From assembly GCF_964340395.1 (NCBI RefSeq), contig NC_135564.1, positions 10,937,391-11,001,390 on the forward strand: a stretch of 64,000 nucleotides of DNA, given 5' to 3'. Below the pieces are notes generated by a model. The model was given only the letters and a program-made list of their open reading frames with translations. It did no database searches and was not told the DNA's origin. Position numbers and translations under genes: made by a program. The stretch is from Glandiceps talaboti (Eukaryota > Hemichordata > Enteropneusta > Spengelidae). This document shows, piece after piece, positions 32,801-35,791 of this stretch (positions within the stretch are counted from its first letter, which is position 1; each line of letters opens with the position of its first letter).

Positions 32801-35791
32801 TCTCAATGGAACATGTAATTGTCAATCTGGATGGACTGGACCGAGATGTACACACGGTATGTTATAATACTTTAGATTTATTAAACTTTTCAATCGATCA
32901 TCAAAATAGCGACTGATTTACTTGATCGTTCAACAAAACACCCCAATGTAATAAATGTATAACTACTCATAGACAATATGCCGCGATCGTCACTGATAAA
33001 ATAATATTAAGCGAGATTCTGGGATTCAAATCCTGGCTTTTAACGGGAATCGTCGTAACTGCCTTTGGTGTACGACTTTTAAATGATGATGGATTCCGGT
33101 GTTGCACGTATTTGATGTCAGTAGTAACTCGGTGTATCTTGTGTGGTTGTTGCTGTTGTCGTCGTCGTCGTCGTCGTCGTTGTCATCGTCGTCGTCGTCG
33201 TCGTCGTTTTTGTTGTTGTTGTTGTTGTTGTTGTTGTCATGATGAGCTTTTCTGTTTGAAATAAAATAACAAATTCTCCTTTCGTATATATATATATTGT
33301 AGAAATCCGAAAGGAAACGCCTAAACCTCCAACAGAAATCGTAACTATTTTGAAGACAGTTACACCTAATACCACCGAGGCCACTACTATACCTGTCCCG
33401 ATACACGTGCGAGGTGGACAGAGGAAATCTATGATGGACGATCCGGGTATGCTAGCCGGGATTGTCATCATCTCCATAGTTGTAATTGCTAGTATCGTTA
33501 CCATTGGTATACTTGCAATGCTTTATAAAAGACGACATCCAATATTTAAACAAAAGTGAGTGTGATAGAACTAATTACACAGGTTACACGTAACCTATTG
33601 ATGTCACTTCAATATATAAATAATATTTATTTTAGCACTCATTTCATGGCATAATTAAACTGATTATAATTAGTAACACATCTTGTACAGTACATTTCTT
33701 ACATGATAATGTCTTGCAGTACCGTGCATTTTAACCAATAGTACTACTTGCACATTTATGAATTTCTGATATTTTGGAAACACGATTATGAATATTAAAA
33801 AAAGATTGTAAAAAATCACATGCAAAAACTTTCGGGATAAATTTCTCTCTCTCTCTCTCTCTCTCTCTCTCTCTCTCTCTCTCTCTCTCTCTCTCTCTCT
33901 CTCTCTCTCTCTCTCTCTCTCTCTCTTTCTCTCTTTCTCTCTCTCTCTCTCTCTCTCTCTCTCTCTCTCATTTCATGTTCACCTATTTACTCACATGTTT
34001 GACTGTTTCATAGGAACTATGACATACCAAATAACACACTGCAAATGGGGACAATAGACCATTCGTATGAAGACGCTGACCAAGGTGAGTGTTCATTTGT
34101 AACATATGCTGAAGAACTTGTTCTTTACTATCAATTGAGTATCATTAATTTTACAGATCATATATATTGTATAATCAATTCTGACTGCTACTTAGTATAT
34201 GATATGTTATGTTATGGTGACGAACGGCACAGAATTCCTCCATAAATTCACGATATGATAACAGACGCACACACAAGCACTCCCACATTTCTATCAAACC
34301 CGGACAAACTTATAATACGCATTTGGTGTGTGCGTATGCCTGTCAGGCTAGGAAATGTTTCTGGCCAACCACGTTTTGCTCATACTGACTTACAGTAGCT
34401 GATGGGCTGCCTCGGTAGGCTTAAGCCAGCCACACGTCTTGGCCAGAAACATCTCCAGACTGCTATAGATATTTTAAAGAAATTTAACTGACTCATGTAT
34501 GCAAAGGTAACGAGTAAAACAGTGATCAACAAGGACTGTGGTATGGGGGGGGGGGGGGTCATTAAATATATTAGTATAATAACACAAGTATACATGTTTG
34601 TATATATATATATATATATATATATATATGTATGTACGTGTGTGTGTGTGTGTGTGTGTGTGTGTGTGTGTGTACTTCAAAGTCGAGAGATAAAAGACTC
34701 ATAAAAGAATTCTTTTTCATTCTATTTTCACAGTGCATTATGCAGTCCCCACTGACAATATATACAGTGAAGTTATTACACAGTCTTCAACTCCCCGTGG
34801 TTCGGATCGGTCTGTTGAAGTTATAACAGAATTGAAAAAGAAACTAAGTAGAGAAAATGTGTATGTTGATGTGGACGTAGATGACAGTAGTAAGGACAGA
34901 GTGGACACTCCTTTGACAGGAAGTGATGATGAAAGTTACCAAGTACCAAGACTCCAGAATGGTTATCCCGTTGCTATGCCAACAGATGAGAAATATGTGG
35001 ATATGGGAAGTACGCAAGGTGAATATCAAGTTCCTAGACAACACAACATTGCCATGGAAACAGAGACACCATACACTGACATGGACAGCACATACCAAGT
35101 TCCACGAGCAGTTAATAATACGGTGAAACCTGCAACTGAAGCGTCGAATGAGATGGACCATATTTACAATGTTCCACGAAGTACAGGAAATGTTACCCCA
35201 GAAACTGATGCTTCTTACATGGACATGAACACCAGTAATACAGTGCCACGTACAGGAAATGCTGCCATGGCAACGGATGCAACGTACGCTGATATGGACA
35301 ACAGTCAAGATCATAGCCACCAATCTTCCAAACGTAAACCGTACACGGGACTGTACCAATCGCCAAGACCCCAACCACCATATTCTGATATTAGTGAACC
35401 TGTAGATGACCCCGATGGTCATCTCTACAACAAAGTTGACCGAACAAAGAAGTCATATCACAAGAATAAAGACACATCGTCACAATATGACAATTTAGAT
35501 AACCATGGCAACACATCACCAACAGACGATACCTATGATAAAGTAAGCCATCAAGGTAGTATGGCTCGTCACCATGGTAACACAGTGAAGGAAAACAATG
35601 AATATGCTCATTTGAAGAATGATGGCAAGGAGAATCCTGATGATGGCTCCTATAATAAACTAAACCACGGCAGTGTAAGGTCTAATCATCACCATGGTTA
35701 CAACGAAGGTTTATATGAAAATCTCGCACAAATTGACGATGAGGAGGAGGATGAGGACAACGTTGATCCAGAGACCGTTCCATTGAAATAA
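26856..35791 (+). CDS. EMI/EGF type-I receptor with tyrosine-motif tail (Draper/MEGF10-like)
   Basis: Seven exons join in frame: 26856-26980, 30978-31048, 31433-31558, 32722-32856, 33303-33555, 34014-34084, 34734-35791; 612 residues. An upstream in-frame Met at 26802 would add 18. Residues 1-25 are a signal peptide. Residues 36-66 are the end-to-end core of an EMI domain (RCPYTVRYEQRTVYR ... YRPCP). Residues 67-107 and 109-152 are two laminin-type EGF-like repeats, each one exon. Residues 153-200 are a Thr/Pro stalk, and 202-225 the membrane helix followed by YKRR. The tail (226-612) has YxVP at Y263, Y329, Y358, Y381, Y405; YxxM at Y348, Y374, Y422, Y445; and YxxI/L/V pairs Y477/Y492, Y512/Y528, Y551/Y567, plus Y588. 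EMI plus EGF repeats is the Draper/CED-1/MEGF10 engulfment-receptor layout, but those have many more EGF repeats. An engulfment or adhesion role signalling through SH2 proteins is inferred. Confidence 0.88.
27400..27535. repeat. imperfect hairpin in receptor intron 1
   Basis: GTTGTACCTAGCTCTGGAAATATGCG pairs imperfectly with ATATATTTCCAGCGCAAGGTCGAAC, and inner AACTCCGACTCG with CGAGTTGGAGTT, around CAGAAG. Likely a small fold-back element. The short open frame across it is incidental. Confidence 0.55.
28400..29740 (-). mobile_element. LINE, 3' part of reverse-transcriptase ORF, degenerate
   Basis: Minus-strand pieces match the C-terminal region typical of non-LTR retrotransposon ORF2: RYRALKALFKLKQDLLF and IPIKLF (29519-29722); VKPILLYCSEVWTHE and EKVHIKFCKFLLNVNCKASN (29262-29525). 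Below these come LTKEAYCLSKN, NYLEDIKTPQYRSAMTKLRI and TCPVCKQGKIG, a CxxC zinc-binding element. The frame is interrupted by stops and shifts between pieces. The 3' end, near 28400, finishes in an (ATT)n-type microsatellite. It is 5'-truncated at about 29740, as usual for LINEs, and lies in receptor intron 1. CR1/L2- or RTE-type; clade not decided. Confidence 0.8.
30828..30890. mobile_element. MITE fragment (GGCGCC family)
   Basis: GCCGTGATGGGCGCCCTCACGCATC matches the left inner part of the family seen at 36497. The other end is missing. In receptor intron 1. Confidence 0.4.
33145..33240. repeat. (GTC)n/(GTT)n trinucleotide repeat
   Basis: Compound trinucleotide microsatellite in receptor intron 4; open frames through it are artefacts. 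Confidence 0.95.
33844..33969. repeat. (CT)n microsatellite before receptor exon 6
   Basis: About 125 bp of CT repeats ending 44 bp before the exon 6 acceptor at 34013. It lengthens the pyrimidine-rich region of that intron and may influence splicing. Confidence 0.95.
34600..34672. repeat. (TA)n(GT)n microsatellite before receptor exon 7
   Basis: Compound dinucleotide repeat in receptor intron 6, about 60 bp before the last exon. Confidence 0.95.

What the first reader, a model, noticed from the sequence alone, without database searches (positions are those of the whole stretch)
34014..35791. Receptor tail built as a tandem array of Y-x-V-P / Y-x-x-M modules followed by three ITAM-like pairs
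Residues 329-448 fall into five units of about 23-29 residues, each starting (Y)xVPR and carrying a second tyrosine in YxDM some 15-20 residues later. Y329/Y348, Y358/Y374, Y381/(lost), Y405/Y422 and (lost)/Y445 make the set. YxxM is the known docking motif for the PI3-kinase p85 SH2 domains, and YxxP for Crk-type SH2 domains. Residues 477-570 then hold three YxxI/L/V pairs with 11, 12 and 12 intervening residues, within the ITAM spacing and close to the Draper ITAM. Two of the pairs end in Val rather than Leu/Ile. A single short EMI plus two-EGF receptor with this much docking capacity is unusual, and the repeat suggests expansion by unit duplication.
Basis: partly seen in the sequence, partly recalled or inferred. 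Interest (0 to 1): 0.85.

Follow-up and report, generated by a model that had tools for sequence, protein, structure and literature searches.

The report
Receptor tail with duplicated tyrosine modules
A gene from a marine invertebrate, probably an acorn worm, appears to encode a small cell-surface receptor whose inner tail has been built up by copying short tyrosine-bearing signalling units, and related receptors on the same chromosome have copied different units of their own.

Summary
The tail's YxVP (5) and YxDM (4) counts were reached in 0 of 20,000 shuffles. The gene model needs one correction: an exon at 29873-29968 was missed. It completes the EMI domain (25.0 bits with it, 16.6 without), giving 8 exons and 644 residues; reader numbers rise by 32. 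Array codons differ synonymously but motif residues rarely change (pN/pS 0.076 versus 0.77 in linkers, partly circular), so the array is old and probably constrained. The own genome (590 Mb) holds related EGF-exon receptors on the same chromosome; five tails found there carry other duplicated tyrosine units, one with two canonical ITAMs. Most likely a kinase-less multi-docking scaffold for Crk-type and PI3K SH2 domains, loosely of the MEGF10/Draper kind; NPxY is absent, so it is not filed as a member. New variant of a known kind. No transcript or orthologue data.

The parts
26856..26980 (+). exon 1: start codon, signal-peptide-like N terminus, first EMI residues
   Evidence: donor CAG|gtaaga, phase 2 out; N terminus MHVFRYSLLGLVFIIFICSCCVSSA hydrophobic by eye, no signal-peptide program run
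   Evidence: in phase, ag/gt; EMI 25.0 bits with it, 16.6 bits without; similar peptides upstream of three paralogues end in a donor at the same codon
30978..31048 (+). exon 3: end of EMI
31433..31558 (+). exon 4: first EGF-like repeat
32722..32856 (+). exon 5: second EGF-like repeat (laminin/DSL type)
33303..33555 (+). exon 6: Thr/Pro-rich stalk, transmembrane helix, KRR stop-transfer (by eye)
34014..34084 (+). exon 7: Y271 DIP and Y287 EDA
34734..35791 (+). exon 8: rest of the cytoplasmic tail to the stop codon
34937..35023 (+). array 1 unit 1: Y361 QVPR ... Y380 VDM
35024..35092 (+). array 1 unit 2: Y390 QVPR ... Y406 TDM
35093..35164 (+). array 1 unit 3: Y413 QVPR ... second Tyr lost (SNEMD)
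35165..35236 (+). array 1 unit 4: Y437 NVPR ... Y454 MDM
35237..35305 (+). array 1 unit 5: first Tyr lost (NTVPR) ... Y477 ADM
35354..35392 (+). further degenerate YxxP/YxDI pair: Y500 QSPR, Y509 SDI
35426..35524 (+). array 2 unit a: Y524 NKVDRTKKSY ... Y544 DNL
35534..35647 (+). array 2 unit b: Y560 DKV ... Y583 AHL
35651..35725 (+). array 2 unit c: Y599 NKL ... Y620 ENL

Best explanation
The gene encodes a single-pass cell-surface receptor: signal peptide, EMI domain, two EGF-like repeats, stalk, one transmembrane helix, and a 388-residue hydrophilic tail with 26 tyrosines and no kinase domain found (read from sequence). When the short ectodomain is clustered by ligand, Src-family and/or Abl kinases would phosphorylate the tail (inferred). 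The five YxVP sites (four YxVPR in the array plus Y295), with YxxP at 271 and 500, would then recruit Crk-type SH2 adaptors towards Rac/Rap and actin, and the four YxDM sites would recruit the p85 SH2 domains of PI3-kinase (inferred from motif). The C-terminal array, YxK[VL]...Yx[NH]L repeated three times, would offer Grb2-type (YDNL, YENL; motif recalled) or Syk-family docking (inferred, weaker). Copying the units raised the number of sites and so the avidity or dose of each output. It would work as a membrane-bound scaffold: p130Cas-like and IRS-like docking on a Draper-like receptor.
For: Intact eight-exon, in-phase model. EMI and EGF by Pfam; EGF exons match TIE2 and SCARF1 sequences in the PDB. 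Motif enrichment. Internal repeat score 239 against a maximum of 110 in 25 shuffles. Motif codons: pS 0.83, pN 0.063; linkers pS 0.64, pN 0.50; 1 of 20,000 random 7-column sets as low in pN. Two PI3K p85 iSH2 exon matches over cut-off in the genome (2 of 14 control genomes rang, 0 over cut-off). Passages: CRK/CRKL SH2 bind pYxxP, and DCBLD2 and DCBLD1, with seven and eight intracellular YxxP, bind CRKL when Fyn or Abl act (PMC6029619); a choanoflagellate crka SH2 bound pYDVP-RS and pYDVP-RN peptides from a transmembrane protein with ten YxxP, and a crk transcript was obtained from the hemichordate Saccoglossus (PMC5043372). Draper and MEGF10 are phosphorylated by Src-family kinases and recruit Shark and Syk (PMC8092387).
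Against: No transcript, protein, phosphorylation or orthologue evidence. Motif function is read from consensus. The motif columns in the codon test were chosen because they looked conserved, so pN is partly circular (pS is not). Alternation of YxxP and Yx[DE]x tyrosines along the tail is not significant (11 of 15 transitions, P 0.083). ITAM spacing is weak. No NPxY in the tail. EMI is marginal: exactly at cut-off on the isolated region, not listed on the full protein at E 1. Crk, Src and Syk genes were not looked for in this genome.
Confidence: 0.55

Rival explanations
1. An ITAM engulfment receptor of the MEGF10/Draper kind: the main output is a Syk/Shark-type tandem-SH2 kinase bound to the C-terminal YxxL/I/V pairs, and the YxVP/YxDM array only modulates it.
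For: EMI plus EGF ectodomain; two strict and four loose ITAM-spaced pairs; a same-chromosome paralogue tail with two canonical YxxL-x7-YxxL; Draper and MEGF10 precedents (PMC8092387 passages).
Against: Pair spacing not significant given the tetrads (1,724 and 1,060 of 20,000); the two paralogue tails most like this one have 0 strict pairs each and 1 and 0 loose pairs; no NPxY.
Confidence: 0.25
2. The tail is mainly an endocytic and turnover device: the many YxxPhi tyrosines are AP-2 sorting signals (recalled motif) and the phosphotyrosine reading is secondary.
For: Ten Yxx[LIV] in the tail, reached by 13 of 20,000 shuffles; scavenger-receptor-like EGF modules.
Against: YxVPR is not a classic AP-2 signal (recalled), though YxDM does end in a hydrophobic residue; the array motifs are the part shown to be constrained.
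Confidence: 0.1
3. The array is a minisatellite-like expansion in a disordered tail with little function; the motifs persist only because the copies are recent.
For: Hydrophilic, repetitive tail; two of ten array tyrosines already lost.
Against: Copies look old: synonymous differences at motif codons are high (pS 0.83) while VPR is unchanged in 5 of 5 units; Tandem Repeats Finder lists no array within 34937-35305.
Confidence: 0.05

Closest known systems
MEGF10 / Draper / CED-1 engulfment receptors (PMC8092387, passages)
   Same: EMI domain, EGF-like repeats, one transmembrane helix, tyrosine-bearing tail
   Different: Only two EGF repeats; no NPxY; ITAM uncertain; no YxVPR/YxDM array is mentioned for that family in the passages I saw
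DCBLD1 / DCBLD2 (PMC6029619, passages)
   Same: Scaffold receptor with seven (DCBLD2) or eight (DCBLD1) intracellular YxxP sites for CRKL SH2
   Different: CUB/LCCL/discoidin-type ectodomain; YxDM units and the second array are not mentioned in the passages seen
Choanoflagellate transmembrane proteins with YxxP repeats (PMC5043372, passages)
   Same: Membrane proteins with repeated YxVPR-like motifs; such peptides bound a Crk-type SH2
   Different: [quoted passage not shown] three of five carry SH2-like domains; no sequence link tested here
BCAR1/p130Cas substrate domain (PMC5043372, passages) and IRS-type YxxM arrays (recalled)
   Same: Multi-site docking by repeated YxxP or YxxM
   Different: Those are cytosolic adaptors; here both kinds sit on one transmembrane protein
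TIE2 and SCARF1 EGF modules
   Same: Best PDB sequence matches of the EGF exons (E 4.4e-16 and 8.9e-9)
   Different: No kinase, Ig or FNIII family listed for the 644-residue protein by Pfam at E 1

Membership tests
MEGF10/Draper/CED-1 | N-terminal EMI domain | tested here: met
   PF07546 25.0 bits, cut-off 25, E 3.4e-5 on the 81-residue region; 23.6 bits, under cut-off, on a 155-residue stretch; not listed on the full protein at E 1
MEGF10/Draper/CED-1 | series of EGF/laminin-type repeats | tested here: met
   two repeats; far fewer than in MEGF10 (recalled)
MEGF10/Draper/CED-1 | cytoplasmic NPxY | tested here: not met
   no NPxY in 388 residues; present as NPVY and NPSY in two of five paralogue tails
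MEGF10/Draper/CED-1 | ITAM, or a YxxL site, in the tail | tested here: inconclusive
   pairs present but spacing not significant and not kept in two paralogue tails
MEGF10/Draper/CED-1 | engulfment function | not testable with these tools
   no expression or assay data
Crk SH2 substrate | repeated YxxP in the cytosol | tested here: met
   7 YxxP, of which 5 YxVP
Crk SH2 substrate | phosphorylation and Crk binding | not testable with these tools
   needs biochemistry
PI3K p85 ligand | YxxM motifs and a p85 in the organism | tested here: met
   4 YxDM; p85 iSH2 exon matches at C7:20805780-20805986 and 20806419-20806655
PI3K p85 ligand | phosphorylation and p85 binding | not testable with these tools
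   needs biochemistry
BCAR1/p130Cas | SH3 domain and FAT-like domain | tested here: not met
   no such Pfam match at E 1 on the full protein; membrane protein
TIE receptors | tyrosine kinase domain | tested here: not met
   no kinase match at E 1

The most novel reading that the evidence does not exclude
In this lineage a group of EMI/EGF receptors on one chromosome evolves its signalling by repeatedly copying phosphotyrosine modules inside the tail, each paralogue amplifying a different module (Crk plus PI3K here, canonical ITAM in another, YSGVDRTGKAY...YDNL in two others), so that docking number and output are tuned gene by gene; the window receptor joins Crk, PI3K and Grb2/Syk-type docking on one chain.
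Probability: 0.4. Interest if true: 0.7.

Novelty: new variant of a known kind. Interest (0 to 1): 0.52.

Why it matters
Docking number on receptor tails is thought to set signal strength, as in the T-cell receptor complex (recalled), but natural series in which one ectodomain type carries different numbers and kinds of duplicated modules are hard to find. If the paralogues signal as their motifs suggest, they would form such a series outside vertebrates and would show how an engulfment-type receptor can acquire adaptor-like scaffolding by small internal duplications.

Tried and rejected
Searching with the tail alone found no relative: the 350-residue tail matched only itself at E 1e-3; the 125-residue array at E 10 gave itself and four weak places, best E 0.93, not followed; viral contigs and genome contigs gave 430 and 587 pattern matches but no confirmed relative; no PDB match for the tail at E 5 or for the EMI region at E 10; NCBIfam gave one weak match, E 0.12, taken as chance. 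A strict alternation of YxxP and YxD sites was tested and is not significant. A recent minisatellite origin is disfavoured. The genome-wide EMI scan (19 matches at E 10) did not list the window's own split EMI exons, so it cannot count EMI genes. Other stretches beside EGF exon matches: L061 and L062 (C8) hold serine-protease-like frames (by eye), L064 has a transmembrane-like frame but no tail seen, and L065 showed no tail; these do not support the reading and were dropped from the tail count. Paper searches on the combination (listings only) showed nothing describing this receptor type; that is limited to the held library and those terms.

Full report
Gene model. Reading exon borders on the + strand gives eight exons, 26856-26980, 29873-29968, 30978-31048, 31433-31558, 32722-32856, 33303-33555, 34014-34084 and 34734-35791; all seven introns are gt...ag and the phases match; 644 residues. 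Exon 2 carries the EMI core. On the isolated 81-residue region Pfam EMI scores 25.0 bits (cut-off 25, E 3.4e-5) with exon 2 and 16.6 bits, second half of the profile only, without it. On the full protein EMI was not listed at E 1, so the assignment is plausible but marginal.

Paralogue support for exon 2. In stretches upstream of four paralogues, peptides like exon 2 were picked out by eye from a permissive tblastn list: L074 (FSETKSVTVQGTSSQKYTVKCGFWSLSRCTKYR, E 0.089), L073 (E 0.12) and L076 (E 5.1); exon-3-like peptides lie in L073 (E 0.58) and L075 (E 0.8 to 17). The E-values alone do not carry this: the best hit of that list, E 0.013, is on the wrong strand of L016 and taken as chance. 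What does carry it is that three of three exon-2-like peptides end in RCTxYR with a donor AG|gtaa at the same codon and phase as the window exon.

Ectodomain. Two EGF-like exons follow. The best PDB sequence matches are TIE2 (E 4.4e-16) and SCARF1 (8.9e-9). No kinase or other cytoplasmic domain was listed at E 1, and none for the tail at E 10.

Array 1. The VPR triplet is unchanged in five of five units, using codons GTA/GTT/GTG, CCA/CCT, AGA/CGA/CGT. The tyrosine is kept in four of five first positions and four of five second positions. Over the ten unit pairs, seven motif columns have pS 0.83 and pN 0.063 and 19 linker columns pS 0.64 and pN 0.50; 1 of 20,000 random sets of seven columns had pN as low. 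The column choice is partly circular, but the high synonymous divergence is not: the copies are old. Tandem Repeats Finder lists no array within the units, while ungapped DNA repeats of 56, 41 and 31 bases at 65 to 78% identity remain. YxxP and Yx[DE] tyrosines also occur before (271/287, 295/303) and after (500/509) the array, but alternation as such is not significant (P 0.083).

Array 2 and the ITAM question. ITAM-spaced pairs exist (496/509, 509/524, 544/560, 583/599; gaps 9, 11, 12, 12), but with tetrads kept and placement shuffled they are reached 1,724 (strict) and 1,060 (loose) of 20,000 times. Two paralogue tails share the pattern Y-S-G-V-D-R-T-G-K-A-Y ... Y-D-N-L with the window's Y524 NKVDRTKKSY ... 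Y544 DNL. BLASTP of the window tail against them gives E 5e-6 (P0001) and 0.003 (P0002), each for that single comparison; a three-way alignment also lines up a C-terminal YE and a D-x-x-E stretch. Among eight hand-chosen units (three from L056, two from L057, three from the window) two tyrosine columns are the only columns kept in seven or more, and both are kept in eight of eight; the units were chosen by those tyrosines, so this is illustration, not a test. Against: the whole-genome search with P0001 at E 10 found only itself and the P0002 locus, and the window tail did not find them. So this homology is suggestive, not firm.

Paralogues. A 258-residue query from EMI through exon 7 gave 153 matches at E 0.1 in the own genome, a lower bound since 147 of 186 candidates were scored; most listed rows cover the EGF part. 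I read nine of the loci it fetched in one orientation and four of those nine in the other, 14 of the 19 EMI-scan loci on both strands, and seven stretches fetched near EGF clusters on C17, C8 and C23. The long EGF frames on C20 were not read. Tyrosine-rich tails turned up at five places, all on C17: L057 (16.69 Mb), L010 (16.71), L016 (16.91), L056 (16.94) and L063 (7.81). L010 carries two copies of a unit with YxxL-x7-YxxL, a canonical ITAM, and an NPVY; L063 has NPSY. With the window that is six tails; each of the six scored higher for internal repeats than all of its own 25 or 60 shuffles. The tails were picked for being tyrosine-rich, and exon starts were judged by eye (upstream bases; the first residue of the L010 and L016 tails probably overlaps the acceptor), so six of six is not an unbiased rate. 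L061, L062, L064 and L065 gave no such tail.

Organism. The window is C17:10937391-11001390 of a 590 Mb, 47-contig assembly. Its mitochondrial contig repeats a 15,435-base unit; the 15.8 kb read is 53% GC. ATA stands at usual isoleucine sites (judged by eye, four of four in COX1), and AAA occurs 6 times in the stretches read, which overlap and overrun gene ends, against 54 AAG. ATA as isoleucine marks echinoderms and hemichordates, and AAA is missing in Balanoglossus (PMC3121625, PMC2697986, passages). This points to an acorn worm. Against: cytochrome b lies between ATP6 and COX3 here (genes other than COX1 named by eye), not next to ND5 as in the hemichordates described there.

Mechanism. Shown or read directly: anatomy, motif enrichment, age and likely constraint of array 1, a p85 gene in the genome. 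Inferred: phosphorylation by Src/Abl kinases, Crk and p85 recruitment, clustering by ligand, and a debris- or microbe-sensing role. The closest working analogues are DCBLD1/2 and the choanoflagellate YxxP membrane proteins whose pYDVP-R peptides bound a Crk-type SH2. Draper and MEGF10 supply the ectodomain analogy, but NPxY is absent and the ITAM test is inconclusive, so I do not file the protein as a member of that family.

Verdict. A real feature, correctly described apart from the exon count; a new variant of a known kind, made more interesting by paralogue tails with different duplicated modules.

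Noticed in passing
L010 (C17:16711996-16715148), minus strand: Paralogue tail with two tandem copies of a unit holding YxxL-x7-YxxL, a canonical ITAM, plus NPVY.
   Followed up: partly
L063 (C17:7807500-7813500): Transmembrane-like frame and tail frame with NPSY, tyrosine units and a DNQS-type repeat; EMI-scan matches lie upstream at C17:7756362 and 7794540; candidate MEGF10/Draper-like gene.
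   Followed up: partly
L020, L061, L062: EGF-exon matches on C5 and C8 lie next to trypsin-like serine-protease frames (recognised by eye).
   Followed up: no
window 13305-14918 and 19257-20396: Two similar pairs of open frames (shared DVCG...PG, WGN and a C-terminal C-x2-C-G...TQG...KY pattern, by eye), no Pfam match over cut-off; possibly a duplicated gene or mobile element.
   Followed up: partly
window 4384-5823: Long open frame made of a repeat (AHNN...VTVHII units), probably a satellite and not a gene.
   Followed up: no
G000 C40: The 51,222-base mitochondrial contig holds COX1 three times at 15,435-base spacing; cytochrome b lies between ATP6 and COX3.
   Followed up: partly
P0001 and P0002: Weak Pfam match to HGAL, a vertebrate lymphocyte protein (E 0.015 and 0.012, below cut-off).
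   Followed up: no
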